DNA from: Siniperca chuatsi
Taxonomy: Eukaryota; Chordata; Actinopteri; Centrarchiformes; Sinipercidae
Length of the DNA stretch: 64,000 nucleotides
NCBI RefSeq assembly: GCF_020085105.1
Contig: NC_058046.1
Coordinates: 3,054,175-3,118,174, forward strand
Reading direction: 5' to 3'
Shown: positions 10,101 to 53,180 of the stretch, piece by piece
How the letters are laid out: each line of letters begins with the position of its first letter
Numbering within the stretch: the stretch's first letter is position 1
Program-made: the position numbers and the translations under genes
The notes under the pieces: model-generated
What the model was told of the DNA's origin: nothing
The model's database searches: none
The model's input: the letters and a program-made list of their open reading frames with translations, nothing else

Positions 10101-12963
10101 TTAAGTTGACCTTATGGGATAATAAATATTTTGCCTCCTCTTCGTTTTAAACACTGTACAGCTCTTTTGATTTTAAAACTGACATATTTTACAAATTTTT
10201 TATTGTTAATTTCGACTTCATATTTAAGATTTGTGACTCACAGTACTTTTTCTTTTACTTTGTTTATTGTGAACGTTATGCACCAAAATACCAAGACAAA
10301 TTTCTTGCATGTTGAAAACCTACTTGGAAATAAACCTGAGTGTGATTCTGATTAAGAATCATAGTGTCTGACCTTGGCCTTTTCTCTTTGTTCCTCCTCA
10401 AATTTGATAATGCGTCCCGCCATCTCCATGGCTTTGGGTGACAGCAGGGAGATGGCAGGCAGTGATGAAGGACTGGAAAGTTCGCTGACATCTGCCTCTG
10501 GATCTTCATCCTTCGCGTCATCACTAACAGCCTGCAGCACGTTAACGTGAGGAAAGTCAGAAATTCAGACAGGTGGATTAATTCAAACAGAGTCGCAGAA
10601 AGTAATACAAAGTGTGTAGCTGTTATCATTTTACAGGGAAGAAAGCATAACATCCAGCTCCACAGAAAAGTTAAACATCCCCTTGAAAAACCGGGCAATC
10701 TGCTGGTTTTGAGATATTAAATTTAATATTAAAACTTGTCTGTTTTAGACTGTATCTCTTACATCTGAGTAATGCCTGTCCTTGCAAACCAAAACTGATG
10801 TAAAAACTAATTTGATGCCATGTAACATGACCTTCTGAAACCAGCAGTTCGGGTTGTTTCAAATATATCAATATTCTGTATATATGCTCTCTCAAATACC
10901 ACTAAGCTCCAAAAAACCTTGGTAAAATCACACAAAAGTTATTCCTTTAACTATCAGAAAATACAGTTTAGTCTGACAAGCTTTTTTTCCCCCTCACATA
11001 CAAAAACACTGAAAGACCAGCATGTACGCTGGGACGAGAGACTTGCCTGCTCACTCTCGATCCTTAAAGACGGGGCTGCGGACGGTGTGTTGTGCTTGCC
11101 GTTGATGTCAGGGATGGATCCTGTGGAGGAAGCCGAGGCCGAGATCTCCTCAGAGAGGCCAGGGCTGGAGTCTCCGGAGCTGGAGCCCAGAAAGCAGGAC
11201 GTCTGCAGGGGCAAGGGGTCGAGACGCTCCAAAATGACCCCGGAGCGCGAGGACAAGCTGAGGGCCTCTTTACAACCAGCCAAAATATGCTGCAAGAACA
11301 CAGACACACACTAAACCTCAAGCGTACTTCATTCATGGGGCGCGTTTAATGGTTTAAATGCAGATGAACACACACTGAGCTCCAATTATTTTATCATATC
11401 ACAGACGTTTCAACTACACTTGTTTTTTTCTTTTCAAGGCAGTTTAAAAGACAACAGTCAGATGTAGTTTTAAATATATACACACCACCAAAAGTTAAAT
11501 CACAAACAAATATTCACTATTAGACAAGAAGAGACATAGCATAAGTTGTGGATGGACGCTAATGATTAATTAAACAATGGCAATTAGGCAGTTTTGCTGG
11601 TCAATATTCTAATATTGAACACAAAAGTAACTGTAGTGAAATAAAAAAAATATATAACAAGTCCCTTTAATATGTAGCGGAGTATAAAGTAGCATAAAAT
11701 GGAAATACTCAAGTAAAAGTACAAGCACCTCAAAACTGTGCTTGAGCAAATATACCTAATAACCAGTGGTGGAAGAAGTACTCAGATCCTTTACTCAAGT
11801 AAAAGTACCAATTCAAAAATACTCTCTTACAAGTAGAAGTCCTGCATTCAAAATCCTACTTAAGTACAAGGACAGAAGTGTTATCAGTACAATGTATTAA
11901 GTAAAAGTACTTTTTCTATCAGTCCTTGTGGCCTTTTTTTATTATTATACTACATTTCATTACATGATTAAAATCACTAACACTGATGCATCAATATGGT
12001 CAACGTGGAGCTAGTTTTAACTACTTTATATACAGTTAGGTAGTTTCGTCCAGTGGTTCCCAACCTAGTGTCCGGGCCCTTCCAAAGGTCACAATATAAA
12101 TCTGAGGGGTCGTGAAATGATCAATTGGAGAGGAAAGAAGAAAAAATGTTCTGATACACAAATCTGTTATCATTTTATGAACTTTTTGCTAAATATTGGA
12201 TCATTTGAACGGTTATAGAAATGAAACCATCTGATTAGTTTAGAGGGGAACCATGACAAGATGCTGCTTTTTTTGTGAGGGGTCACAGGCCAAAAAGAGT
12301 TTAATATTCAAATCTTAATCTGAAAAGTAACTACATCTGGCAGATGTAGGTAGTAGTTATGGACATTTTACTCCTCTACAAATGTAGAATGAGATTTTAC
12401 TCTTAAAACGTAGTGAAGTACAAGTCTAAAGTGACATAAAAGGAAATAATAAAGTAAAGTTCTTGAGTAAATGTACTTACTGACTTTCCACCACTGTTTT
12501 ATGTGGCTTACCTTAGACCTATTTTTTGGTGCGTATCCACCAGACAATGTCAGACTCAGTGGAAGACCAAGAGACAAAGTTTCTACACTAGTTAAAAAGT
12601 GAAGAGCCAGTTCTTCGTTTAGCTTAATACTATTAAGGTAAGCAAAACATTAGCTAAATAACGTTGACTAATTAAAGACTTCCACCTGCTGGTGCTCCTT
12701 CCTAATGGTCATAATTGGTGATTTTAGCAAACTGTGGTGCCGGTGGAGCTAAATGGTTAAACAGTCTAGCTAACGTTAGCTAAACAGGCAGGGACAGCTT
12801 TGCTAAAATTAACTAACGTTAGCCATTAGTCAGCTAATGTCTGAGTTAGCTAGAGTTAGCTCACCTCGCCCCTTTCCGACCAGTATGGGTTGTATATGAT
12901 ATTTCCCTTTGGTGAATTTTTTAAGGCCTGTAAAGTTTCCCATCGTAGATTTTCAGCAGGCAT
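1124..12963 (-). CDS. gle1: gle1, mRNA export factor GLE1 (3' end beyond the left edge)
   Basis: GLE1 is the nuclear-pore mRNA export factor that, with inositol hexakisphosphate, activates the helicase DDX19/Dbp5 on the cytoplasmic face of the pore. Twelve exons join in frame: 12865-12963, 11047-11289, 10373-10531, 9056-9204, 8902-8962, 7409-7660, 6021-6243, 3523-3635, 2800-3012, 1642-1832, 1420-1549 and 1124-1228, giving about 646 residues. Visible landmarks are the [11 protein letters not shown] start, a charged coiled coil rich in E, Q, R and K (about residues 170-400), and the C-terminal GLE1 domain with [49 protein letters not shown] and [12 protein letters not shown]. Human GLE1 has 698 residues, so about 70 C-terminal residues (the FWK region) are missing; I found no convincing exon in 1-1123. 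Intron 2 uses a GC donor. An RTE LINE sits in the intron between exons 7 and 8. Confidence 0.95.
3736..4850 (+). mobile_element. 5'-truncated RTE-type non-LTR retrotransposon (LINE) insertion
   Basis: The insertion is bounded by a perfect 9-bp direct repeat AACTCTAGC (3727-3735 and 4851-4859), the expected target-site duplication. It ends in a GAA-rich tail (gaaaagaagaagaag), as RTE elements often do. It carries the C-terminal part of a reverse transcriptase and lies in the intron between gle1 exons 7 and 8, antisense to the host gene. The 5' part (endonuclease and the beginning of the RT) is missing, so it cannot be autonomous. Confidence 0.9.
3741..4814 (+). pseudogene. reverse transcriptase fragment of the RTE-type LINE (open, 357 codons)
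   Basis: A 357-codon open frame without stops covers the palm/thumb part of a non-LTR reverse transcriptase and its C-terminal tail. It begins inside the RT ([18 protein letters not shown], with the first catalytic-type aspartate at about residue 19), continues through [19 protein letters not shown] and reaches the active-site FADD box at about residues 107-110. It then runs on to KYLGS, a C-terminal RxRWFGxVQRR-type region and the terminal RCGDP. Endonuclease and N-terminal RT residues are absent. The ATG at 3741 is incidental, lying 5 bp inside the truncation point. The lack of disabling changes over more than 1 kb suggests a recent insertion. It is called a pseudogene because the element is truncated. 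Confidence 0.85.
5020..5330 (+). repeat. dispersed repeat, copy 1 (pairs with 38990-39260)
   Basis: 'agacacagttagagac' followed by 'agcagctaaagagccagata' and 'caggagttggtggagaccaa' recur in the same order at 39081-39185. This is a common type of anonymous fish interspersed repeat; no terminal structure or coding was recognised. It lies in the gle1 intron between exons 7 and 8, downstream of the LINE. Confidence 0.55.
10020..10353 (+). repeat. LINE/SINE-like retroelement tail, copy 1
   Basis: It is AT-rich and ends 'aaataaacctgagtgtgatt ctgatt', a 3' tail type seen on L2/CR1-like elements in fish. It is clearly related to 42090-42380: both contain 'aaacactg(t/c)acagctcttt' and 'caccaaaataccaag' followed by the same ending. 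No coding capacity is visible. The tail ends only about 18-20 bp from the splice donor of gle1 exon 3 (the exon's lower edge is 10373). Confidence 0.5.
11764..12497. repeat. MITE-like repeat with CAGTGGTGGAA inverted ends
   Basis: The left end is 'cagtggtggaagaagtactc' and the right end is its near complement 'gactttccaccactg'. The body repeats variants of 'tactcaagtaaaagta', a signature I know from abundant non-autonomous hAT-like elements in fish. A segment at about 12045-12320 ('cagtggttcccaacctagtg' to 'gaggggtcacaggcc') looks like a second, nested repeat. I could not find matching 8-bp target duplications, so the exact ends are uncertain. It sits in gle1 intron 1. Confidence 0.6.
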
Positions 12964-13081
12964 CACGGCAGGAGAGGTAAACAAAACCCAAACTACAAAA
13001 CTACTAATAGCGCTAAGCTAAAGCTTGAGCCGCCGGATGAGGTTACATAAATTACAATCCGACGAGAAACAGCCCGCCTAT

Positions 13082-13103
13082 TTCCGGGACGCTCTGTTTC
13101 CGG
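13082..13103 (-). promoter_or_regulatory. paired ETS-type sites in the gle1 promoter
   Basis: Two ttccgg motifs (13082-13087 and 13098-13103) read CCGGAA on the minus strand, 120-140 bp upstream of the gle1 ATG, as in TATA-less housekeeping promoters. Confidence 0.4.
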
Positions 13104-13967
13104 CTGGGCCATACTCTTTATTATATTTTTTTTATGGTTCGGCGATATCATATGAATAGCATTGCACACGATAAAATCTAAACTATGTAATAGCAAGATT
13201 TATTTTACTATTTCGAGTATTTCTGACCCGGTGGCTCAACGGGAAACACCACATTATTGCAGTCCCTAAAGCGGTCCGCCTTTTTAAATCATTCTGTCCA
13301 TCAATTTTTTTCAAATACTCACCTCTCACGCCAAAACGTAAAAGCTGATTGCAATATTACACATTACACATATATTACACAAAATTCGGCGTAAAAGCCA
13401 TTCACCAGTATGCATTTTATCTAATAGCTTCACCTGATCCATGGTGTGACTGCACACCCTGACAACCCAATTATAAATGTTGACATTTAAATTAAACAAG
13501 ATTTTGTTGCATCACAAATATGCCGAGTTAAAGAACAGAACCGAGTAATTTATAAAATATCATAATTTATGTCTTATTTGGTTTTTATATTTGCAAATGA
13601 GCAAGAATATCATGAATTATTAAGTTCTAAATGGGGTTTGGCGTAAGTAGGACGAAAATGTTTTATTTAGGTAATCGCTTTATATGAGTTTACATGTTTT
13701 TTTTTCTAATTTACACAGAAATAAAATGTGAGACTTCAGTTTTAAAGAAGCCTCATGTTAAATGTTATTTAGGGAATTAAAACGGGGGTGTTTATTATGT
13801 GTTCTGTCAGAAAAAATGTATTTGCTCAAAAGGTGAAAAGGTGAGTATTCAAATTCAGATACATGAAAGATGGAAGCAATGCAAGAAATGTGCAGCAAGT
13901 TATTTATTCAAAAGAATATAAATACATTTCAGGCAACTAAAATGTAAGAATTTCATTTTTTAAAAGT

Positions 13968-13973
13968 TTTATT
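13968..13973 (-). terminator. polyadenylation signal of odf2
   Basis: TTTATT on the plus strand (AATAAA on the minus strand) lies about 120 bp after the odf2 stop codon. A second copy is at 13903-13908. Confidence 0.5.
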
Positions 13974-14092
13974 AATTTCATATATAGCATATAAAACTCT
14001 CAGGTCAAGCGTAGTAGTCAATAAATGTCATTTAGGTCTACTACAATGCTTTGGGAATGGATGAATGCTGGTCAGGTTGGAGGATTTTGCAG

Positions 14093-17000
14093 TCAGCTTG
14101 CGAGCAAAGAGTCATTAAACACGTTTCCATATGAGGTTTTGAGAAAATGAACATAGTTGTGCAGACTGCGGTTTGTAGAGTCTGACTGCTCCAGTCTGTC
14201 CTTCATGTTCTGCAGCTGACTCTGGAAACGACGCTCCATCTGAAAACAGAAACAACACATTTTCTTTAAACTAATTTTTATTTCCGCTGTTTGTTACAGC
14301 GCACAGCAGTTCTAGCATGAGAACCAGCGGTTGTATGTCCAAAATCCATGGACATCGCGACGTACCTCCTCCTTGCTTCGCTGTAGCTGACTCTGCTCCG
14401 CTTTGGCTCGGCTCAGCTGGCTCTGCAGGTCCAAGGCTTTAGACTGACACACTCTCTCTTTGGCTAAAACCCTCTGCATGTTGTTGTCCACCTGCAGGCC
14501 AGAAAGGAAAAAGTTGAGTTCAAGTTTTCCTCACTATGTTTACATGGACTGCAATATTATTACCACTATAAACCCCAAAAAAATAACAAAACACTAAAAT
14601 TATTTATCATTTTTCTACTTTTAGATTAATTATGCAGGGGCACTGTAGACGTGTACACACATGAAACCAACTAACTGTAATTACTGGAGTTTTGTGGCCC
14701 ACACATTTCTTGTATGAAAGTTGCTATAAAAAGTTATTGAAATAGTAAAAGAGAATGAGATATCTTGACTTTTATTCCTGTGTGTGTGTGTGTCAACCTC
14801 TTAGGAACTTGAGAAAAACCGGTACAGTTAGCAGAGTCCAACCTTGTTTAAATCATCAAACTGACAATATTCAGTCAAGCGTTTCTCGGCGGCCACTCTG
14901 TGACTCTAAGATAAGTAGTTATGTGATGTTTTGTTCTGAGGACGCTGACGGACAGGTAAAATAAGTGACCGTATAGTTCAGACCTGTCTCTGTGCGTCGT
15001 CCAGAGCTTGCTGTAGCTGTCTGGACAGGACGCTGCACTCGCGGGTCTTCTCCTCCAGCTGCTGCTGAACGCTGCGGATACTGGCTTCCTTCGAGGAGAG
15101 AGCCTGACACATCTCTTTGTTTTCTGCCTTCATGTCCTCCAGCCGCCTACAACAAACGACACAGAAATCAGCAGTTTGGAAAATGTATGGAAACCATTTC
15201 TGTCACAAAGCATTTTGTTTAAAGTAATACTTTTATCTTAAAAATGTATATATTTATTTTTCAAAGTGTCTGTACCGCTCTAAGTTGTGAATTTTCTCTT
15301 TGAGAACGTTGTTCTCCTCCTGCAGCAGCAGGTTCCTCTGCTGAAACGTCTCCAGCTGAGTGCCTTGCTGTTCCACCTGTGGAGGAACACAATTAACAAG
15401 CAACACAGTGTCAGCCATGATATAAATCCATCTCCGTGGAGGCGTCCTGGAGGCCTCGGGGTCTAAATCGCTGGCAATATAACAGCAACATCCCCAGTTC
15501 GAGTCCAGCCAGCAGCTGGATTTTCTGTCAGTTTTCTGTCACCTCTATGCTGCTTGTTTCCAAATAAATACCCCAAAACATATCTGCAGTATTACCTCAG
15601 TAAGCATGAATTTAAAAACTGTGATTCTCTTAAACTTATATCTGTAGCAATCACTGATTGAGTTTATGCACAATCATGTGAAAAAAAAACAAAACTGACT
15701 GGACACATTTCTGTTTTCTTATTATTCTATACATAATCTTTCTGTTTAATTATCAGCGGGGTATATACATTCTTTCCCATTAAAAAGACAAATGAAAGCC
15801 TTTTATTTTATAAAAAATAAAATACTAAAAATGTGTTTTGCTTCCTTCACTTTGATGTTTGAATGATGTATGTATGTTTCTTGTGAATACTGAATAATAT
15901 TTGCATTTTCGTAGATGTAATTTAAAGATTTTTTAGCTACGCAACTTGAGTTTTTTGTAGAGAAACCCTATCAGACAGAAATTATTATTCAAAGAGATTT
16001 TTTAAAACATGTTTTGAGGGGATCTTTAAGTAAGAAAACATACTTTGGCGCTATCTGGTGGGAGTATCAAGAATGACAGCATGGTACTGAGTTGACCACC
16101 ATGTATTTTTTCTTATTTATTTGGCTGGTTTTGAAAGGGATTCAGAAATTAGGCCAGGTGCCCACTAGACATTGTTTTGCTAGAGGACATCGCATATCAC
16201 CCAGCGTAATTTCAGGGGATTTGTTGTCGATTACGCTCAATCAACCTCTCACACAAGAATGCCAGTAAACGCAGACTGGAACGGTTTTTATTTAAGGTCC
16301 GGAGCACAGAAGGGAAATCAACAGCAGTGCGGCGACTCATTCACCGCAGGAAGCCGAAGAGGTTCGGTAATGACTCTGCGAGAAGATTTATACAACTTTC
16401 ATTAGTTGGTTTCTTTTGTAAAGTGAGAATATTTGATCTTCCACCAAAATCTTTAACCTGAAAAGTCGACAGTTTACCAAAACTCTGTCCAATTATCATG
16501 CTGCTTGTGAGACTATTTAATCTGTTGAAGACATGCTTTATATTGAAATGTCAGTTGTTGAACCTTATTAAGAAGCTCTATAACTGTGTTACAGACCTCA
16601 TCTCTCCACATCCTGTGACTTCTGTTTAAAACCTTTAGTTAACTTGTATTTGCTCTATTTTAACAAACTAATGAGTGAAATACAACAAAGTAAACCTTCG
16701 TTATTGCACCATTCCGCCCCCCCTCTAACTATCAAAGCTATAATATATCTTACAGGCTGTTAAGTACCTTGTGTCTGACTTCAGAGAGGGCGGAGTTGTG
16801 CTCCATGTTCCTCCTCTCGTGGGCGTCGGCCTCCTGCTGGGCGTCTCTGAGCTGCTGCTCGGTCCTCCTCAGTCTGTCGGGCAGCGTCTCGAGCTCTCTG
16901 AGCCGGCCCAGCAGCTCCCTCCTCACCTGCTCCTTGTCCCTCTCCAGGCTCACCCTCACCTCCCGCACCTCCTTCTGTGTCATCTCCAGCTTCAGGCAGT

Positions 17001-20000
17001 ACTCCTCCGATTCCAGGCGAGCCTGATGGACCTGCACAGAGAAGTCTGACGTCACTACAACACAGTAAACACAGTAAACTTCAACACTTTCCGGTATCTG
17101 AAGTCTTTCCAGGAAGAGATTATGCTTTTCCAGAGCGTTACTTTAACCGAATCACAGAAAATATATTATCCCATCGCCAGACGTAGATGAGATCTTATGT
17201 GTGTTTTTGTGATTTGGGTGAACTGAACCATTTAAAGTCTCTTTAACATTTGTTTGCGAAAGAAAATCTGTCACCAGTATAAAAACTTCCAAAACTCACG
17301 CTGATGTACTTTGGGTTTTTTTTACCGGGGCATGTTTGCAGAAATCAGTTTGGTTCTACCGACTCTATCGCAGAAAAGGTTTCAGAACACTCCTGGACGA
17401 ATGAGGGACTACACCGTCTTATTTTGAAGAATTTTGGGCAGAAAACCTTGGATCTGGTTCGGGAACTCGAAAACACAGCCAGGAAATTAGCAGACCACAT
17501 CTCCCTGAAACCTTTTCTACGATAGAACACTCCTGGACGAATGAGGGACTACACCGTCTTCTACCGACTCTATCGCAGAATTTAGAAAAGCAAATCATTG
17601 TGCAGAAATTTGGTCAAGTGTGTAAAGTTACTCGTCATTTGTTCGCAGGTTTGAGTGTGCAAAGTGAAGCAGCCTCGCTGAGAGTGTGACTGTACCTTCT
17701 TCTTGTATTTCTCCACCAGGTTTTCGTGCTTTTTGATGGACGATTTCAGCAGACGGGCTTCAGACTGCAGACCTCCGAGCTTCTGCTCAGATGACGTCAA
17801 CTGACCCTAAATATGATGTATGATTATAATAAAGGCCATTGAAATACATTTCCTCTAGTCCACAGAAATTATGAAACAGCAGAAGAAGAAGCTGTCAAAA
17901 CAGATAATTTAACAATATTTACAAATTAACACTTTTGTCAAGAAAATTAGCCATAAGAGACACATTTTTATAACAATTTAGGTGATGATGATTCATGAAC
18001 ACTCAGCGATCATAACGTAGAGAACACTTGTCTTCTATAAATACCCATCCAAGTTATTTTTCTTAAAAGCATAATGTGATGAATGAGGCGCGTTTGATTT
18101 AATAAATGTTTATGAAACTGATTAGAAGTTGTGGGAAATCTCAAATCTGCTGTAGATTTTTCTGAAGGTACCTTGAGTCTTTGGTTGTCCAGCTTGGTGG
18201 AGGCGTTTTCAGCGCTGAGGTGATGAAGCTGATCCCTGAGCTCCTCCCTCTCCGCCCGACTCCTCTCCTCTGCCGAATGAAGCCGAGAGTTCAGCTCGGT
18301 CACCTGACTGTGAAGGAAGCACGTACCACAATTATATACTTTCCAAATTTATAAAAAAAAATATATCTTCATGTCAGTTTTCTAGACTGTAATGAAATTA
18401 AATGTAAAGCAAACCTTTCAAGTGTTATTAAATTGAATATTTATAGCATTTCTCACTGCTCTATATACATTTTATTTATTTTTGTACTAATTTACAGAAT
18501 CGAATAACTGACTCATTAACTCTCTGTCTTGAATACACCATAAAAAACGTGATGGTACTTCAGAAATTCCATCAATGTCCAATTTAATCAAAGTAACACT
18601 ATAGCTGAAGATTAGTCCTCTCAATAACAAATATCACAGTATGTGAAATGACAGCTGTTGTACATTCAGTGTGTAATCATATTTTTTAAAACTCTGTTAG
18701 ACTTGCAAACCTTTTTAAAAAAGGCAATAATTATCAAGTCTTTCATGCATTTTCTCTTAACTAGATAAACTGGTGCAGAGGCGGCATTATATGTGCAGGA
18801 GATCATTATTTTGATTATTTGACTCTGGGGTTTAATTTTGCTCATTCAAATGTTCAAGTAGTAATTTGTGACATTATTATAAACCAGTTCTATTTTGCGG
18901 CAAGAGGAGTTCTTGCTCCACATGACGTGCTGACATAAATTCTGTCTCTCTTACTACAAATCCATAAAAATTCTAAATTATATGATGAAAAAGACGCCAA
19001 AAATAAGTACGATTTTGATATGATTGCCTGATCATCCCGGTCTGTAAATAGGGATGATTGTATCAAAATAACAAAAAGTAAAAATCACAATGTGAAAATG
19101 TTTTTCGGGCCGTACTGTGGCGCACATCATGATGTTTTACAGCAACAAACTAAATGCGCACTCACAATTTGAGAGCAGATATGTCCTCCTCCAGCTGTCC
19201 TTTAGCGGCTGCCTCCTTAGAGTGGCGGAGGCACCAGTCGCTGGATGTGGACAGAGCTTGGGCCAACTGGGATTCCTTAAACAAAATACACATGTTGTCT
19301 TATCATTATTGTTTCAAGTTATTTCACACCTGGAATACATTTATATTTTGGGACATTTTGCTGAGACTCCTGACAAAAGGGGGTAGGAGCTGCAAGACAA
19401 GATTCACAGTAAAGTCAAACAAACTCAACAAGCGAGAAACTGTTCATTCCCACAACACGTCTGTACTGTAGTCTGCTGTGTGTTCTGTACAAACTCAGCC
19501 ATCAGGTGCTTTCAAAGTTAAAATCAGGCTACAGTAGCCTGTCCTCGTGTGTGTTTCACTGGAATATTGCAACTGAACCAAGAGGCTGGCTGAACTTCCT
19601 TTGAACTTGATTTGCATAAAAGCGTGTGATCAGACCACCAGTGAGAAAACTAATTTGCATGCAGGATAAACCACAGAGAGGTCTGCGGATCATTCTAAGG
19701 AACTGGGAAAGACATGTTGCTTGTAATTTTTTGATGCGTTGTGTTCCACCAAGTTACGGGACTAATCTCCGCCCACCACTCTGATGTTCTGTGATTTTCA
19801 GACATTGTGGCGTAGACCCGTGGTACCTCTGAATACTCGCCTTCTCCTGCAGTTTTGCCGCAAGCTGCCTGGCGGACTCTTCAGCTCGCTCGGCCTGCTG
19901 GGTCAGCAGGGCCAGCGCCTCCTGGTCTTGCCGCTCCTCCTTATCCTCCTCTCTCTGCTGCCTCAGATTCTGCAGCTCCTCCTGCAGAGCCTGAAGATCC

Positions 20001-23000
20001 TCCTGCTGCTGCCCGCGGCTCTGCTGCATCTTCTGCTCCACATGCAGAGAAGGAAAGAGACATTCACACATCCAGTTTAAAGGGTAATACAGGCACTTAT
20101 ATGCTGTTGTGACAGTCTGAAAGGGATGAAAATCCCATTTCAGAGGGTCAAATAAGGCGGGTCAGCATCATCCACTTTCTTACATCCCGAAACACCCGGT
20201 AACACTGTATATGAGCAACCAATAGCAAGAACAGGCAGAACTTGATCTACTCCTCCACTACACATTTTTCTGGTGCAAACCTACTGCAACCTTCTTGAGT
20301 TCCAATTGGCTTAAAATGTCACAAGTCATACTTTCAGTAGAGGATTAACGGAATAATTTATCTTTTAAGATAAACACTCACTCTCTTTCAGGTTGCATAC
20401 AATTAGATAGACTGCTTAATATGCTACTTCCAGCGGAGCTACTGAACGACAAAGAAGTGGAAGTTTGACCCGGACGTAGTTTATTTAGCCATGTTGTGGA
20501 CAAACTGTGGATAACGCGGCAGGAGTGGTTTGAGAAGTTTCCATAAATGTTTGGACACGTTTTTTTTACCGTGACTCTGGGTCACCAAGCTGACTACAGC
20601 TGCTGTCCACCACAGAGGAGCAAGCTACAAACGTTTCAGAGCCTCCTACAGGGAATGAGTGAAGAAGAAACAGGCAATATGACCAAAAGTATAAAATCAT
20701 CATAATATATAATATCATCACAGTATCACCATGCTGGATACTGATTTAGTAACAATGACAGTTAAAGAACGAGGGTTTTTAGCCTTCAGAGCTGAAATAC
20801 GTTCGGACACCGGCCGTTTCCCTCTAACACCGACAGTAGCACCCATTTAACTGTCAGTGTGTGTTGGACCGATGAAAACAAGTGGTCCACGTCTGACAGT
20901 TCAAGTGTGTGTGTGTGTGTGTGTGTGTTTTATTGTATTTTATGTTCACAGACCTGAACCTGAGCAGCCAGATGGGCCTTTTCAGCTTCTGTTCTGTTCA
21001 GCTCAGATTCTAGATGGTCGCGGGTTGACTGCAGGATTCTTGAAAGCTCCTCCATCGTCTTCATGTTGTCCTGCCATGACAGAGGGAAGCAGAGGGGGAG
21101 GGGGGAGTTCCTAACTGTGAACACATGAAGCTTAAAAAAGGTGTCTATGGCTGTGTAAGAGATATAAACCTTTTTCTACAAAGCTTTGACAGAATACAAG
21201 TTGTGTAAACTTTCTACTTTGGTAAACCAGTGTAGTAGTAGCACAAATCTAATGGTGAGCTTTTCAAACCTTTTCAAAGTCCAAATGCTCAGCAAGTTTA
21301 GAAGCCTCTTTCTCCTTGTTGGTGAGTTTGGCCAAAAGTCGCTGTAAGAGAAGAAGAAAAACAAGAAAACTCTCCTCGCATGTCTGGTGCCTGACGATAA
21401 AGGTGAATGACCAGGTGATAATTACTCACAATGTTCTCTGCTTCACTGTCGGCGATTCTCTTCTTTAAGGCATCTTTCTGTTCTGACCACACCGCTGATT
21501 CTCTCTGTGGACACAACACAGCATGCAAATAACAGTAAGAAGAGAATTATTGCACGTCGGCATTTGTTCTCCTTGAGTTTTCTTCTACTTCCTGTACCTC
21601 GTATTCACTCCGCTCTCGGAGGAGCTCTCGGAGGCTGTGATTCGTGTTGTCAAACATCTCTATCTTCTCTAACAACAGCTCCTGCTGCCGTCCCAGCGAA
21701 GCTGCATGCAACTTTGACAGCCGCTTGTCCTAAAATATAATTGAATAAATATAAACACAGTCATGTACAGCATTGCATTCATTCATCCTGCATCTATCCT
21801 TCATCCTCCTGATCAACTGTGTACACAAAATGATCGTTTGGTGCCAAATTTACCTTGGCGAGGCTGTCGATAGTTTCCTTCAGAGCTGTCAGCTGATTAG
21901 CTACAGCTACGCCATCGATTTCTGCTTCTACAAGCGCCCTCAGCAGCACGTCTGTCTCTCTGGGTTGACCCCTAGAATCTGACCTGCAAGCAAGAGGAAA
22001 GACAATCAAACTGAAATACCAACGTGTGTATACAGCTGTCATCGCATGAGACATTTATCATAGGCCTGCATCTTTTCTGGTTATTTTGAAAGGTTAAGTT
22101 GCAGCAAAAAGGCATCTCATCCGCACAAAAAAGTTGGCATTTTCGTCAAAATTTATGATGATGAGTCTAAACCCACCAGAGTATTTTTACCACAGTGAGA
22201 AACTCCTTCTGTCTACTCCACAGCAGGTTTTATGTCCTACAGCTGTTTCACAAAATATTACTCAGGGACAAACTGCAGTGTTGACTAACACAGTTCCCCA
22301 AATAAAACAGCACACGAACAACAGTTTTTCAGTAAAAAGAGAAGACTAACACAGTGCACTATGTCCTGTAACTGTAACCTAAGTTTACTGTATTATTTTC
22401 TGGTCTATTTTTGGCAAATGTACGTCTCTGCCTGGACGACAAATGGCAACCCAGCAGAGAAGCCCTTGCTTTTTTAATTTTGAGGGGACTGACAACAACA
22501 ACAACAAAAAAAAAACCTGACATCTCTTAAAACTATCTGGATGGGTTGTCTCATTGTCTACATTTGGACAGTTACAGTATCCACCAAAAGAAGACAAATC
22601 ACCACAAAAGAAAATGTACCCAGATATGAAAAGTACATGAACTGTTCTGAACACTATTAAAGTGTGTTAGGGTGGGTTTTCCTTTGTTATTTTCCGGCTG
22701 CTGAAGAGGCTCATACTTCTTTAAACGACGAATGCTTTCTTGCTCTCTGAGTAGGACGCTGAGGTTTTTGGATACTGCAGCCAGCTCTTCTTCCTGCTCC
22801 TCTGCGTCACGCTGGTGTCCGATTCCACTTTCTGATCGATGCCGCACTCTGCTTCTCTGATCATGAGACACAAACAAACAAGACCCATGTTCAGCGATAG
22901 TGAATAGTTTCTAATTGAATTCGGACGACAAAACGTACAACAGGGCTGCACGATAAACAATAAATATCTGTACTGGATTCTGCAATCAAAGCAGGGGCTG

Positions 23001-23917
23001 AAATATGTTCTTAAAGGAAAAGATATTCAAGCTCTTAAGTATTTAAAGTATTCAGTGCTGCCTAATTCCCTACCGATAAAACATGCTGCGTATCAGTGAA
23101 TATCTTCCATTTCAGTTCAGAGCATCAACATCTTTTACATGTTTGGAACATGTTTACGTGCTTCTAAATTGCATATTACCTCGGTAAACAAGCCATGAAA
23201 TTAGATTATTACTTCTTACTGTTTTGTTTAAATCCAGTTTTGTTTGTAATCTTTGTTTGACCACATTCAGCACTCCTGTCAAACCCTTCTGTCCTGTTAG
23301 GGGTGCGAATCCCTGCCAGAATATCCTTTCCTCTCGCCTCTTGTGTTCATTTGCCTGCATGTTTACTGGCACTGTTTGAAAGCATGGCGGTGAGAGATAA
23401 ACACTATAAAGAGACTTGACACTTGTATGAACCCACATCTCTTCGGCAGGACAGTCTTCCTGGAGGAATCCACGGCGTCCGGACCTTTGGCCTCCCTCCA
23501 TCTCCCTTCACCTGGGCATCTTTTGTCCTGTTCTGCTGAAAAAAGGAGGGATTCCACAGGTAAAACACAAGACTTACTGTGGCATCCTCGTAATAATTTA
23601 TTTGTAAACTCTTTAAAAAGTATGTTAAAGGGAAAATTACAAGGTAAAGAAACTAACAAATCAGTGGGGGTGACAACAGACAGGTGATGACTTTCACAGC
23701 TACAAAATAATGTACTATGCATCTGATATATTTGATCACTATGCATATATATCAGCATTCAAGGTGACCTATAAGAACGTCAATATGTATTTCCACTTTA
23801 ACAAACCTGTGTACTAACCTGTGGGGTCCTGCTGGGACTCCTCCTCATATGAACATGTACAGGTGTGGTCTCCGGTACATGGACGTGAACCGGCGGCGGT
23901 GAATCCCGGGTTTTCAT
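14093..23917 (-). CDS. odf2: odf2, outer dense fibre protein 2 / cenexin
   Basis: ODF2/cenexin is a coiled-coil scaffold of sperm outer dense fibres and of mother-centriole appendages, needed for ciliogenesis. Exons in frame: 23819-23917, 23437-23535, 23220-23312, 22717-22856, 21854-21983, 21598-21729, 21430-21504, 21270-21341, 20954-21070, 19841-20035, 19166-19275, 18172-18307, 17696-17806, 16768-17031, 15276-15376, 14984-15146, 14366-14491 and 14093-14239, about 769 residues. The start (MKTRDSPPPVHVHV, then TPVHVHM) matches the human cenexin-type N-terminus. PKVRTPWIPPG, ALVEAEIDGVAVANQL, QQELLLEKIEMF, LEEKTREC and DRLEQSDSTNRSLQNYVHFL match the family in order. Nearly everything after residue 100 is predicted coiled coil. 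Exons 2 and 3 have weaker splice sites and are tentative, and the 5' edge of exon 10 could shift by 3 bases. The intron after exon 10 has a GC donor. The gene lies directly upstream of gle1 on the same strand, as ODF2-GLE1 do in human. Confidence 0.93.
15450..15530 (+). repeat. possible tRNA-derived SINE remnant
   Basis: A B-box-like AGTTCGAGTCC (15496-15506) follows 'aacagcaacatcccc', a combination I associate with tRNA-derived fish SINEs. A clear A box is not evident. It lies in the odf2 intron between exons 14 and 15. Confidence 0.25.
15540..16740. other. long odf2 intron, no feature recognised
   Basis: AT-rich sequence between odf2 exons 14 and 15 without a convincing open frame or terminal-repeat structure. 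Confidence 0.4.
17376..17558. repeat. modular palindromic repeat, copy B
   Basis: It contains the module 'cctggacgaatgagggacta' twice in the same orientation (near 17392 and 17532), the module 'tctggttcgggaactcgaaa' in the middle, and 'ctgaaaccttttctacgata' near 17508. A 22-bp direct repeat beginning ttctaccgactctatcgcag flanks it (17354-17375 and 17559-17580), which points to target-site duplication, though a few terminal bases may belong to the element. It lies in the odf2 intron between exons 13 and 14. Confidence 0.7.
20905..20928. repeat. (GT)12 microsatellite
   Basis: A 24-bp GT run in the odf2 intron, about 25 bp downstream of the donor of exon 9. Confidence 0.95.
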
Positions 23918-24094
23918 TCTTCTGAGACGTTACAACAACATTTAGATCGCGTTTAGGATCAACGAAGACCCAACCAAACAAATATTAAAAGCGGTGGTTC
24001 ATTACGACCGCGCTAAGTTACATGTTTCCAAGATATTCCCAGACTTTTTGTCTGTGGAGCGGACGGTTGTTTGGGTCGACAAACAACCACCCTG

Positions 24095-24129
24095 ATTGGC
24101 TCGCTCGCAGTATCCTGTTCTGTGATTGG
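24095..24129 (-). promoter_or_regulatory. pair of CCAAT boxes in the odf2 promoter
   Basis: ATTGG occurs at 24095-24099 and 24125-24129. On the minus strand these read CCAAT about 180-210 bp upstream of the odf2 start and next to the X-box-like site, a spacing often seen where NF-Y and RFX cooperate. Confidence 0.45.
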
Positions 24130-24151
24130 TGGAGGCGCGTTTTCGATAAGC

Positions 24152-24166
24152 GTTGCCCGTGGTAAC
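24152..24166 (-). promoter_or_regulatory. RFX X-box-like site upstream of odf2
   Basis: GTTGCC-CGT-GGTAAC is an imperfect palindrome (on the minus strand GTTACC-ACG-GGCAAC) resembling the RFX X-box, with a 3-bp rather than the commonest 2-bp spacer. It is 235 bp upstream of the odf2 ATG. X-boxes mark cilia and centriole genes, which fits odf2/cenexin. Binding is inferred. Confidence 0.55.
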
Positions 24167-24278
24167 CATTTAAAGTAACGGATGATGTTTTAAAACACAT
24201 TAATAGGGCCATCTCCTTACACTCTACTAGCTATCTAAGTTTGTATTTAACGGCCCATTTTTGTCTTACTATCTATCT

Positions 24279-24313
24279 TTCTTAATAAATAAATAAATAA
24301 ATAAATAAATAAA
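24279..24313. repeat. (AAAT)n tetranucleotide repeat
   Basis: A run of aaat/aata units in the odf2-CULT divergent intergenic region. Confidence 0.9.
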
Positions 24314-24561
24314 ACAATCCCAAAAAGGCACAATGAAACCCAAAATGGTGGGCGGGTTACACAATTATTTTTTTCCCCTACAGTTCAAATGTAGCAAATG
24401 TGTCAGTGAAATGGCCTTTCTACAAAGGCAGTATTATTTCAAACTTAAAACTTGTTAAATGCCAATTTAACAGTTATGTGACCGTTGTACTGTAATGTGT
24501 AATGTGCGCAGTTAGAGTAGGAAATGGTTGAGATGACTGCATTTCCTGTTTCTTTCCATGG

Positions 24562-24569
24562 CACTTCCG
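24562..24569. promoter_or_regulatory. ETS-type site upstream of the CULT gene
   Basis: CACTTCCG (complement CGGAAGTG) lies about 280 bp upstream of the first in-frame ATG of the CULT gene, in otherwise unremarkable sequence. Confidence 0.3.
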
Positions 24570-24844
24570 AACAGAAGTTAGCCTAAAGAGCAAGCTAACG
24601 CTCGCTAGCTAGTCGCCTCTTAAGTTCACGAATCACCACATAGTGGTATATTAACACTGCAAGTTAGTACTTCTTGATCGAGTTAACATACTTAAGTGAT
24701 GAATCTGATATTCTTTCGATTGGTATTTGATAACCAAACGACAATCGTCGGTGTTCGCTCGACGCACCTCAGCTAAAAACAAAGCTACTGGGAGTTTAAG
24801 CTAGCTAGCTTGTGATTAGCCTTCCATGTGCGTGCGAGGCAGCA

Positions 24845-26417
24845 ATGATGTGCAAGCGGAGCCTGCGGCTGCTAGTAAAGCAGCTGGAGAGGTTAATAAT
24901 GCAGTATATTTCCTTTGTACTCCTGTTTTATCCCGCTCCATACCAGCCCGGTGAGGCGTGTGCTGCCATAGCGGAAGAGGGGGGAACCAGCCCCGCCACC
25001 CAGATACTGTGCAGGGCGTGTGGGCATGAGCTGGCGTTCGGGACGGACATCCATTTCGTTCCCAGCCGACTGGCGCTCTCCAGCCGCAACGACACGTTGG
25101 TCGGGGGCCGAAGGGTTAACATCCAGCTTTTCGAAAACCCCCACGGACACCGGTTTGAGGTGATTACGTTCAGAAAAGCGGATGTTACCAAGCACTGGCC
25201 GGCAGATAAACACTTCTCCTGGTTCCCGGGGTTCTCATGGACGGTGGCCACCTGTCCTCGGTGTAAAACTCATTTAGGTGGGTACAAACCCTTAATGGTG
25301 CAAACAAACAAAACAATAATAATAATGCATCTTCAACTTAAAACAAGTTATTACTGAGAGCAGTTTCAAGAACATTTTTTGATGAGGTCTGTGTACTGTG
25401 AGATGAGACAGGTCAGATCATTTCGACCACCAAGAAATAAACATTGCTGTGTAAAAACTTTATGCCTGTTTCGACCATCTGGTCACTTTTGTCATCACAT
25501 ACTCCTAACAAGCATGCGATAATTAAACTGTTAAAAGGAAAGAAATATGCTTAATCATGAACTACTTATATCTACACCAGACTGTAGTGATCAGAATTTA
25601 GTATATCATAATAAAGACTGTTTATATATATATATATAAATAAAACTTAACCAACAAATTCAAAAAAGTTATAAAACTTATAAACTTGTATTTATTCCTA
25701 GAACAAGTAACAGTTATTAAATCAAAATTGAGTTATGTACTCATGTAACTTCTTATAATCAAGTCTTGGAGATCATAAGATTCACTGTCTAAATTACGGA
25801 GCAAATAACTTTGAAAAGCAAGTCAAAATAAAAAATATTTTAAGGTTATGCATACTCAAGTTACTTTGGAGAACTGTTCTACTTGTATATATGCCACACT
25901 TTGTTATAGTAAGGATTTATTATTTGAAATCTTAATTTTGGTGCAAGTGATACTTTCAGATTTTAAGTCAAATGAGTCTAGAAACACACACCTGGTAACA
26001 AATCCTTATTAAATACCATAATTGGCATAAAGGTTTGGTATGTCATATTTGGGAGTAAGTGTTAACTTCAAATCTTAATCTCAAAGAAGAAAAAGCAAAC
26101 TGAGAAGCAGCAAGAAACAGGCTTTCATGCTTATCTCATCCTTTACTGGCAGACTTCCCACTTGTTTGGAACCATTTGCTATATTTTAATCATGATATAA
26201 AGCGTGATGCCCATTTATCAAACACTTTAACAAGTTTCCGTTTGTCTTTTCTCTTACTCCAGGCTGGGCCTTTCAGCCCAGTGACTGGCCAGACACGATC
26301 ACGAAAACCAGCTTTGAGGAGTCGGAGCACACCTTCTTGGCTTTAATCAGCCATCGTCTGTTAAGAGAAGACTTTGCTTCAAGCCTGCTAATGACTCCAA
26401 AGTCCTTCATGAGCTGA
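24845..26417 (+). CDS. single-domain CULT (cereblon-type ligand-binding) protein
   Basis: Two exons, 24845-25277 and 26263-26417, join in phase (G codon split at the junction) to give about 195 residues, or 177 if translation starts at the ATG at 24899. The body matches the thalidomide-binding C-terminal domain of cereblon. It has a zinc CxxC (CRACGHEL), ENPHGHRFEV, then HFSWFPGFSWTV, a second CxxC (CPRC) and GWAF; the three cage tryptophans and four zinc cysteines are all present. The cereblon LON domain and the DDB1-binding region are absent, so it should not form a CRL4 substrate receptor. The ATG at 24899 opens a short hydrophobic stretch (MQYISFVLLFY) ending near a cysteine. This resembles a signal peptide, and secreted CULT proteins are known in animals. 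Earlier in-frame ATGs at 24845/24848 add a basic leader. A polyadenylation signal AATAAA lies at 26479-26484. Function unknown; ligand binding is inferred. Confidence 0.85.
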
Positions 26418-26478
26418 CGGACTTTTGACTGTACAGTTAACCCAGGTGCCTTTGCTGCTACCTGAAACTATTTTTTTT

Positions 26479-26484
26479 AAATAA
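26479..26484 (+). terminator. polyadenylation signal of the CULT gene
   Basis: AATAAA lies 62 bp after the stop codon, in an otherwise T-rich context. Confidence 0.6.
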
Positions 26485-26714
26485 AGTTCTATGCACCCAC
26501 TTGGTTTGAAAACTCCCACACATGTAAACACAGTATGTTTTATTATTGTAACAAAGCAAGCTTTACACCTCAAATTTTAAAACAGTTTCTTTTCCCCCCA
26601 GCGGAAAAGGAAAATGTGATTAACTGTGAATTCTATGAGATAACAGGTTTATTTTACCCATGAAGCAGTGGGGGCCAAAATTTACAAGCTTGTTTTTTTT
26701 TTTCCATTTTGTTC

Positions 26715-26720
26715 TTTATT
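26715..26720 (-). terminator. polyadenylation signal of set
   Basis: TTTATT on the plus strand (AATAAA on the minus strand) lies about 690 bp after the set stop codon. It is only 230 bp from the convergent CULT signal. Confidence 0.5.
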
Positions 26721-27409
26721 AAAAATGTCATTTCAAATCTCAATGGATATCTGTAAAACAATACAATGAAAAAAAAAAAAGTCCCATAGAAATGGTGTCA
26801 AAATAACCACTCTCCCCAATAACCAACATACTCCTGCCCCTCCCCAGCTTATCCCACCCCCTCCCCCTAAACATTACAAGTCAAAGGAATGAGCTGGTAC
26901 TCGTTAATCACATAGGGGAAAAATAACAGTTTGGGGATCATCACCCCAACTTAAGAAACAAAAAAAAAAATATATGGGAAAAAAAAAAAATATTGAGGTC
27001 AACTAGCGCTGGGTCACTACACCATGGCTTTAGTCAATTTACCACACAACCTTTAACAGGAGGAATTCTGTGTGAATTGTCTTCAAATTCTACTCAGGAT
27101 GCCGTGCTGATTCTATTTTTATACTTTTCTTTTTTTTTTTTTAAATTATTTTTGAGACGACTTCGGGGATGGTACTCACAATTCAGGGCAAAGTGCCATT
27201 GGCCTAAGATGAGTCAAAGGAGAACATAACATGGCACCAACAAGTGAAGAGGCCTCAGAATGGAAAATGAAGCACACAGGTTTAAAAATAAAAATTTAAA
27301 AAAAAAAAGTAAAAAAATAAACATAAAATTAAACCTTTGCTCCCGAACGTGAGTGGAAAAACCAAACAGGGAATAGAAGGTTGAGGGTCTGGGTAGATGA
27401 TGTTATTTC

Positions 27410-30460
<3,051 letters not shown>

Positions 30461-30740
30461 GTTTTCGCAAGCTGGGGTAACTTACAGACGTCTGAGAAAA
30501 TAGCTGGTAGCTTTGAATCCGGTTTCTCCTTGAACAGGAGAACGTTAATTCGGCGTAAAGTTCAGCGTGCAGAAGCCAACAACGTGCTGCTTTCTACACA
30601 ATGTAGCTGCCGATGAGCGAGCGAGGAGGAAGTCACAGCAAGCGCTGCTCACGCGCTCCTTTCATTACGAACGCGCCTCACCGAATGGAGCAGCGACGAG
30701 CTCCGCCTCTCAAAATAGGTCTCACTACTCGGCTCCAATT
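30461..30740. promoter_or_regulatory. set promoter, divergent from pkn3
   Basis: This is the most GC/CpG-rich stretch near the set start (e.g. gagcagcgacgagctccgcc), followed by a CCAAT at about 30727. It is probably the set promoter. A bidirectional role for pkn3 is possible, but the pkn3 start site cannot be placed. Confidence 0.4.
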
Positions 30741-31310
30741 TGCTGATTTAGTACTGTCTCTTCTCTTAAAATCGCACCCAAAATGAACTAAACCTCGAAC
30801 TGTTGCTTATATTCATCAAATCTGCGATTTTAAAATTAATTGCGGCCAAAAAATACGTTTATTCAGGCAAGGCCAAACCTTCAGTTGGACCGACTCGCAC
30901 TTGCGCACTTTAAAAAGATGCTGAATATCAGTTGAGGCAGGAGCCTCGTTCTGGTGGTCAGTGCAAATTAGCCCGTTAGTCACAGTTTTGTCCCGAGCTA
31001 GCTAATTGTTTGTTTTAGATAAGAAAAGGTCGAATAAACAGGATATTTTTGTTTAGGTTATGTCCAGTAGCTTGCGTACTCCTTCATTGTGTTTATAAAC
31101 AAAGCCATGTCTAAATTATAGCTTTACATTTTCTTATTTAGCGGGGAAAACCTTTATGCTAGTGAACGTGTAATAGCCAATAGTCCAATTACGACAAGTG
31201 TACGGTGAGGAATGATATTTTAAGCGTGTCCTTTTCATGTCTACATGTAACTCATATATTAATGACCTGTCAACTTGAGCCCGCCAATCTCCACTGTCAT
31301 TTTACAGGAT

Positions 31311-32398
31311 AACAGGCGGCTGAGAAGAGGACAACAACAACAAGACAAGACGTGTGTATGCAGGGCTTGGAGACATTCACATTGGGGATTCACAATGCTG
31401 TCAGCAAACCTAGCTGTATGCCCAAGATCATGTTAAGTACACCAGCAGCTGCTCCTTCATTTCCCACCCCCTGGATGTGTGTTGACTACTCTCAGTATGT
31501 TTATTAATGTCTTTCACACCACCTTCTGTCAAAGCAGGTTAAACAAATCTCCTAAAAACTGCAGGCTGGTCTCTTTGCCTTGTCCCGAAGGGAGCAGCAG
31601 CAGCAGCAGCAGCAGCAGCTCTGTGTTTGTCTTTTGGTTGGTGACAGCACGGGAACATGTGGTCCTGCAGCGGCCAATGCCGAGCCCAGAGCAGGCGATC
31701 AGCACTGTCAGACTAGCAGCAGCAGTGCTGGCACGGGAGAGGGACTCTGTAGTCCCCCTGCAGAGAGAAACCCCCTTAAAAGAGAGAGAGAGAGGGAGAG
31801 AGAGGGATTTGATTACAGAGCGGAGGATGAGGATGCAGTGGGAGGAAGGGGATGTTGCAGAGGAGTCTGCAAGGAGGCAAAAACAAACAGGAGGACAGGC
31901 TGTGTGATCCAGATCTCAAGATGTAGGAGCCGCATCAGAAGAGCCCTCTGTCAAAGTGTGAGTGTGTGAACGCACTGTAACATCAGGGGACTTGTGTTTC
32001 AAGGATAGTGAAGGTGGAGAGAGGCGCAACCTGAGAAGTCCCCTCTCCATCTCCACAGAGGATGACAAATTAGTCCTTATTCAGCAAGGAGCGAGAGCAT
32101 CACCCTGAGGTTAGTGAAGTGCAAAGTCATACTGTTTCCACCTGATTTGAACATGTTGTTCTCACTTATCCCCTCTCTTCTTTGACACTTGTTTTTGTCC
32201 AGTATGGAAATGATTTGTGTGTGCAGCACTGTCGCTGGCGATTTCCTCATGCTCTGCCACTTGTTAATATAAACTATGGCTGTATTCAGTCAGTGTGTTG
32301 TTCATGAATGCGCTCCTGTCCCCCGCTGACCTGTCAGGGGGAAAAAGCGTGGTGACGAAGTGGGGCTTGTTGTCTCTTGATGTGATGTCTTTATCCAG
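31311..32398 (+). other. candidate pkn3 5' leader region with CAG repeat
   Basis: This stretch lies between the divergent set promoter and the first recognisable pkn3 coding exon. A possible acceptor precedes 31311. A possible exon with acceptor before 32059 and donor after 32110 (GAG then gttagt) has stops in all three frames, so it could only be untranslated leader. Reading frames through the (CAG)8 tract at 31595-31618 have no resemblance to PKN N-termini. I looked here for the Rho-binding HR1a exon and did not see one. Its role as a leader is inferred from position only. Confidence 0.3.
31595..31618 (+). repeat. (CAG)8 trinucleotide repeat
   Basis: Eight CAG units upstream of the first recognised pkn3 coding exon, possibly in the pkn3 leader. 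One plus-strand frame reads poly-Gln, but it lacks family similarity. Confidence 0.95.
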
Positions 32399-32404
32399 GA
32401 TCAG

Positions 32405-49356
<16,952 letters not shown>

Positions 49357-53088: not shown

Positions 53089-53090
<2 letters not shown>
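50140..53090. other. pkn3-zdhhc12 intergenic region, left part
   Basis: No coding exon is recognised. It may include a long pkn3 3' UTR at its left end. 51420-51560 has 'gctagccaaactagctaggt'-type low-complexity repeats, and 52740-52920 reads like anonymous dispersed repeat. Confidence 0.35.
50621..50644 (+). repeat. (GTGAAG)4 tandem repeat
   Basis: Four hexamer units downstream of pkn3. Confidence 0.9.

Positions 53091-53180
<90 letters not shown>
53091..53180. repeat. (AT)45 microsatellite
   Basis: This is an uninterrupted 90-bp AT dinucleotide run between pkn3 and zdhhc12. It creates spurious Ile-Tyr open frames on both strands and is likely unstable and polymorphic. Confidence 0.98.

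What the first reader, a model, noticed from the sequence alone, without database searches (positions are those of the whole stretch)
24845..26417. Stand-alone CULT-domain gene with an intact tri-tryptophan ligand cage
The deduced protein keeps both zinc CxxC pairs and all three cage tryptophans of cereblon's thalidomide-binding domain. It lacks the LON and DDB1-binding parts and may carry an N-terminal signal peptide. A small secreted or luminal ligand-binding protein of this type has no settled function in vertebrates, and it sits here in an otherwise ancient syntenic block where I recall no human counterpart. This is the best candidate for undescribed biology in the window.
Basis: partly seen in the sequence, partly recalled or inferred. 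Interest (0 to 1): 0.7.

Follow-up and report, generated by a model that had tools for sequence, protein, structure and literature searches.

The report
Fish-type secreted cereblon-domain (CULT) gene
The window holds a small two-exon animal gene for a protein made almost only of the thalidomide-binding (CULT) domain of cereblon; proteins of this kind were described from animals up to fishes in 2015, so the gene looks real but of a known kind whose job is still unknown.

Summary
A two-exon gene model (24845-25277 joined to 26263-26417, GT-AG intron, AATAAA at 26480) encodes 195 residues. They match the cereblon CULT domain (PDB phmmer E 1.5e-11) and a profile of 60 bacterial CULT domains (E 5.9e-20; no other of 1220 window ORFs matched). 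Both zinc CxxC pairs, the three cage tryptophans and the NPHG motif are kept. No LON domain was found in 14.9 kb upstream. The N-terminus has a signal-peptide-like hydrophobic stretch, but also a basic amphipathic start that resembles a mitochondrial presequence; secretion is likely, not shown. 'Undescribed biology' is only partly right: Lupas et al. 2015 (PMC4287342) described this class, animal proteins of one CULT domain plus signal sequence, from placozoans to fishes and not beyond, with a zebrafish member. That would also explain the missing human counterpart. Most likely function (inferred): an extracellular or luminal binder of cyclic imides or uracil-like ligands. Structure prediction and the own-genome search did not complete. 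Verdict: real gene model, known kind, function open; low interest.

The parts
24845..25277 (+). Coding exon 1: N-terminal targeting region, first zinc CxxC (C56, C59), NPHG motif (98-101), SWFPGFSW with cage W126 and W132, second CxxC (C137, C140)
25278..26262 (+). Phase-1 GT-AG intron, 985 nt
   Evidence: joining the exons raises the CULT profile score from 58.2 to 67.6 bits
26263..26417 (+). Coding exon 2: GWAF with third cage tryptophan W146 and F148, C-terminal FLALISHRLL segment, tail, stop
26480..26485 (+). AATAAA, candidate polyadenylation signal
24893..24928 (+). Hydrophobic stretch LIMQYISFVLLF (residues 17-28), candidate signal-peptide core; the (-3,-1) small-residue rule allows cleavage after residue 38, 40, 41, 43 or 48
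24845..24898 (+). Residues 1-18, net charge +4, amphipathic (moment 0.65; 1.5% of 5000 shuffles reach it): presequence-like start, absent if translation begins at Met19 (24899)
24826..24954 (+). Upstream ATG opening a 42-codon out-of-frame ORF that overlaps the start; matters only if transcription starts upstream of it (another upstream ATG at 24699 opens a 25-codon ORF ending at 24776)

Best explanation
A protein-coding gene of the known animal family of secreted, single-domain CULT proteins (group II of Lupas et al. 2015). Shown here by sequence: gene model, CULT homology, intact zinc and cage residues, no LON domain detected. Inferred: the N-terminus directs it into the secretory pathway, where it folds around one zinc ion and holds a small ring in the three-tryptophan cage. 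The most likely natural ligand, by homology with cereblon, is a cyclic imide (for example a C-terminal aspartimide or glutarimide of an aged peptide), with uracil or uridine as second candidate. Without a LON part, and outside the cytosol, it would not act as an E3 substrate receptor; it would act as a soluble scavenger, sensor or carrier of such ligands.
For: PDB matches, E 1.5e-11 to cereblon and 1e-9 to bacterial 4v2y; bacterial-profile match E 5.9e-20. Human pocket residues N351, P352, H353, S379, W380, W386, W400, F402 (numbering; printed one too high) are N98, P99, H100, S125, W126, W132, W146, F148 here. F at the H378 position is the bacterial majority, 48 of 60. No LON in the product or upstream. 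The hydrophobic N-terminal stretch exceeds all of 60 bacterial N-terminal parts, whose starts are not established. After cleavage at 40 or 41 only the four zinc cysteines remain, and there is one N-glycosylation sequon, N82-D-T. The family with this architecture: PMC4287342 section 7. C-terminal cyclic imides as cereblon ligand: PMC11974815 and PMC12117711, passages. Uracil and uridine binding by a bacterial CULT protein: PMC4287342 section 9.
Against: No comparison with zebrafish NP_001121712.1 or any other named member: their letters were not at hand. The stretch between the hydrophobic core and the cleavage candidates 40/41 is long (about 11 residues), and residues 1-18 look like a mitochondrial presequence. 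E377, H378, Y384 and Y355 of human are H123, F124, F130 and H102 here (human numbers), so ligand preference may differ. A 14-residue insertion follows the first CxxC relative to human. Pfam gives only a sub-threshold Yippee-Mis18 match (15.3 bits, cut-off 26.6). No expression data, no structure prediction.
Confidence: 0.8

Rival explanations
1. It is targeted to mitochondria, or dually targeted through two start codons: the long form (Met1) carries an amphipathic presequence, the short form (Met19) a signal peptide.
For: Residues 1-18 have net charge +4 and helical moment 0.65, reached by 1.5% of 5000 shuffles; Met19 lies within the hydrophobic stretch 17-28.
Against: Lupas et al. assign a secretion signal to the animal family; a signal peptide with a long basic n-region gives the same pattern. 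No predictor trained on either class could be run.
Confidence: 0.12
2. It is a fragment or pseudogene of cereblon that lost its LON exons.
For: CULT homology; phmmer scores cereblon chains (up to 47.3 bits) above the bacterial CULT chains (41.3 to 42.8 bits).
Against: Intact frame, splice sites and polyadenylation signal; no LON trace upstream; only 33 of 122 aligned columns identical to human CULT, rank 58 of 61 among human and bacterial domains in that alignment, low for a recent copy of a vertebrate cereblon, though identity over columns of differing length is a crude measure.
Confidence: 0.05
3. It is a yippee/Mis18-like or other beta-tent protein rather than CULT.
For: The best Pfam match is Yippee-Mis18.
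Against: That match is below the curated cut-off; all 46 PDB sequences at E<=0.001 are named cereblon or 'cereblon isoform 4', and the three CULT tryptophans are present.
Confidence: 0.02

Closest known systems
Secreted animal CULT proteins, group II of Lupas et al. 2015 (e.g. zebrafish NP_001121712.1)
   Same: One CULT domain, no LON found, N-terminal signal-like segment, zinc and cage residues
Cereblon (CRBN), thalidomide-binding domain
   Same: CULT match by sequence, zinc CxxC pairs, three tryptophans, NPHG
   Different: No LON part found; residues at human E377, H378, Y384 and Y355 differ; 14-residue insertion after the first CxxC and a 9-residue one after GWAF
Bacterial single-domain CULT proteins (e.g. 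MGR_0879 / MsCI4, 4V2Y)
   Same: Single CULT domain; F at the 378 position as in 48 of 60; best identity 42 of 105 columns (L001)
   Different: No comparable hydrophobic N-terminal stretch in 60 of 60 bacterial N-terminal parts; the bacterial profile scores human CULT (78.0 bits) above this protein (67.6 bits)

Membership tests
CULT domain family | Significant sequence match to the CULT domain | tested here: met
CULT domain family | Two CxxC zinc motifs | tested here: met
   C56, C59, C137, C140
CULT domain family | Three cage tryptophans and NPxG hairpin motif | tested here: met
   W126, W132, W146; N98-P99-H100-G101
CULT domain family | Beta-tent fold | not tested
   Structure prediction was busy at every attempt
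Secreted animal CULT proteins (Lupas group II) | Consists of the CULT domain, no LON | tested here: met
   No LON match in the product or upstream; limited power for single short exons, no transcript data
Secreted animal CULT proteins (Lupas group II) | N-terminal secretion signal | tested here: inconclusive
   Hydrophobic core and (-3,-1) sites present; no trained predictor; presequence-like start
Secreted animal CULT proteins (Lupas group II) | Clusters with named members | not testable with these tools
   No collection offered holds animal genomes or proteins
Cereblon | LON domain | tested here: not met
Cereblon | DDB1-binding part | not tested
   No separate search was made; the 195-residue product outside CULT is only a 55-residue N-terminus and a short tail

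The most novel reading that the evidence does not exclude
Fish make an extracellular (or organellar) counterpart of cereblon's degron reader: a secreted CULT protein that captures damaged, cyclic-imide-ended peptides or uracil-like metabolites outside the cytosol, a role lost in land vertebrates, with altered ligand preference (H, F and F at the human E377, H378 and Y384 positions).
Probability: 0.3. Interest if true: 0.55.

Novelty: new member of a known kind. Interest (0 to 1): 0.22.

Why it matters
Cereblon's CULT domain is the target of thalidomide-type drugs and is recruited by many degrader drugs. A fish protein with the same cage might bind such compounds outside the cytosol, which would bear on zebrafish thalidomide work, and its natural ligand would help to explain why the cage is so widely kept. 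As a class it is not new: the family was named in 2015. I saw no function for it in what I read or in the listings of three paper searches.

Tried and rejected
Cereblon with upstream LON exons: searched in six frames over 10001-24902, nothing at E<=0.01. Chance motif: rejected. Viral relatives: two scans of viral contigs; in each 2 stretches matched a pattern and none was confirmed. Literature: 'CULT domain' + cereblon + secreted gave 1 paper. 'CULT domain' gave 15 papers, of which I opened three: PMC4287342 (sections 7, 9, 10 and passages), PMC11974815 and PMC4449219 (passages only). Six specific phrases gave 32 papers, 30 listed; by title the listed ones other than PMC4287342 and PMC11032742 use the words in other senses, and PMC11032742 was not opened. 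'cereblon + aspartimide + bacterial + CULT' gave 0. Of the 42 papers on C-terminal cyclic imides (10 listed) I opened PMC11974815 and PMC12117711 (passages). The sand fly paper cited by Lupas (PMC2714351, passages) holds neither 'cereblon' nor 'CULT'. A PDB search of one minus-strand frame of 26418-41399 gave 0. The bacterial promoter and terminator scan does not bear on an animal gene and was not used. The apparent extra residue before SWFPG in the pairwise human alignment was dropped as a pocket difference: most bacterial domains also have F before S, so the extra residue lies further upstream. No tree was built, because only one cereblon and no named secreted member were at hand; whether this protein is nearer to cereblon or to the bacterial group is open, since column identity and phmmer bits point opposite ways. 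Rows dropped: 6 of 66 bacterial loci (L009, L026, L047, L054, L062, L065) did not fit the motif-spacing filter. That filter itself demands both CxxC pairs and W..G..W, so their invariance among the 60 is imposed and is not evidence.

Full report
What is there. The plus strand at 24845-26417 holds a compact two-exon gene model. Exon 1 is 24845-25277 and exon 2 is 26263-26417, separated by a 985-nt phase-1 intron with GT and AG ends, a pyrimidine-rich stretch before the acceptor, and AATAAA at 26480. The product has 195 residues. The stop-to-stop ORF of exon 1 starts at 24809, so an in-frame stop lies just upstream.

Is it CULT? Yes, by sequence. phmmer against PDB gave 46 distinct sequences at E<=0.001, all named cereblon or 'cereblon isoform 4'; best E 1.5e-11 (47.3 bits), bacterial 4v2y 1e-9. 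A profile of 60 bacterial CULT domains matched the spliced product (5.9e-20, 67.6 bits) and its exon-1 ORF (58.2 bits), and no other of the 1220 ORFs of 30 residues or more in the window; human CULT, added as a control, scored 78.0 bits. The bacterial set had been fetched with an alignment of the window and human domains, so this is support rather than an independent discovery. No Pfam model passes its cut-off: the best is Yippee-Mis18 at 15.3 bits, cut-off 26.6.

The pocket. The alignment holds the window protein, human CULT and 60 bacterial domains (60 of 66 loci passed the motif filter). The filter demands both CxxC pairs and W..G..W, so conservation of those among the bacteria is imposed. 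Not imposed, and the same in all 60, in human and here, are N98, F127, G145, W146 and F169 (the last lies in the C-terminal segment). P99 (57 of 60), H100 (40), S125 (47) and F148 (44) are the commonest bacterial residues and are as in human. Human E377, H378 and Y384 are H123, F124 and F130 here; F is found in 48 of 60 bacteria at the second and 19 of 60 at the third of these positions. Human Y355 is H102 (numbering from His353 and Tyr355 in PMC12117711 passages). The protein shares 42 of 105 columns with its best bacterial relative and 33 of 122 with human, which ranks 58th of 61; phmmer, in contrast, scores cereblon chains above the bacterial ones. Which group is nearer is therefore open.

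The N-terminus. Residues 17-28 have a mean Kyte-Doolittle value of 2.21; 0 of 60 bacterial N-terminal parts reach it (their true starts are not known). The small-residue rule allows cleavage after 38, 40, 41, 43 or 48; after 40 or 41 a 17.5-kDa protein remains whose only cysteines are the zinc ligands, with one N-glycosylation sequon, N82-D-T. Against a plain reading, residues 1-18 form a basic amphipathic helix like a mitochondrial presequence (moment 0.65, 1.5% of 5000 shuffles as high), and a start at Met19 would remove it. Out-of-frame upstream ATGs lie at 24699 and 24826, the second overlapping the start. No trained predictor was on hand.

Surroundings. Pfam gives two NAP matches for set, both below the cut-off of 28.6 bits (25.9 and 25.3). 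The CULT gene would thus be head to head with odf2 and tail to tail with set. A sub-threshold HR1 match on the plus strand near 32.4 kb (22.5 bits, cut-off 33.1) suggests pkn3, which I recall lies beside SET in human. No LON domain was detected upstream.

What is known. PMC4287342 (sections 7, 9 and 10 and find passages) describes two main groups besides cereblon. Group II is animal proteins, placozoans to vertebrates but not beyond fishes, made of the CULT domain with an N-terminal secretion signal; a zebrafish member is in its alignment, and it reports a sand fly member as a salivary protein. The window gene has this architecture as far as tested, and by its neighbours the genome looks vertebrate (inference), so it is best filed there. 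Membership is not fully proved: the signal peptide is inconclusive and no named member could be aligned.

Mechanism. [quoted passage not shown]). With the cage residues intact, binding of an imide- or uracil-like ring is the best inference. Work as a ubiquitin-ligase receptor is unlikely because the LON part is missing and the protein would lie outside the cytosol; this was not tested. Scavenging, sensing or carrying the ligand are all open.

Limits. The structure prediction and the search of the window's own genome did not complete (5, 10, 19, 31, 39, 46, 58). No animal sequence collection was offered, so orthology, expression and absence from land vertebrates rest on the 2015 paper.

Noticed in passing
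   Followed up: partly
27502-29200, minus strand: set gene (NAP family) with an acidic stretch at 27502-27642, tail to tail with the CULT gene.
   Followed up: partly
32402-32482, plus strand: Sub-threshold Pfam HR1 match (22.5 bits, cut-off 33.1), perhaps a pkn3 exon; a SET-PKN3 neighbourhood is recalled for human.
   Followed up: no
53090-53180: Pure TA dinucleotide array, 45.5 copies, 100% matches.
   Followed up: no
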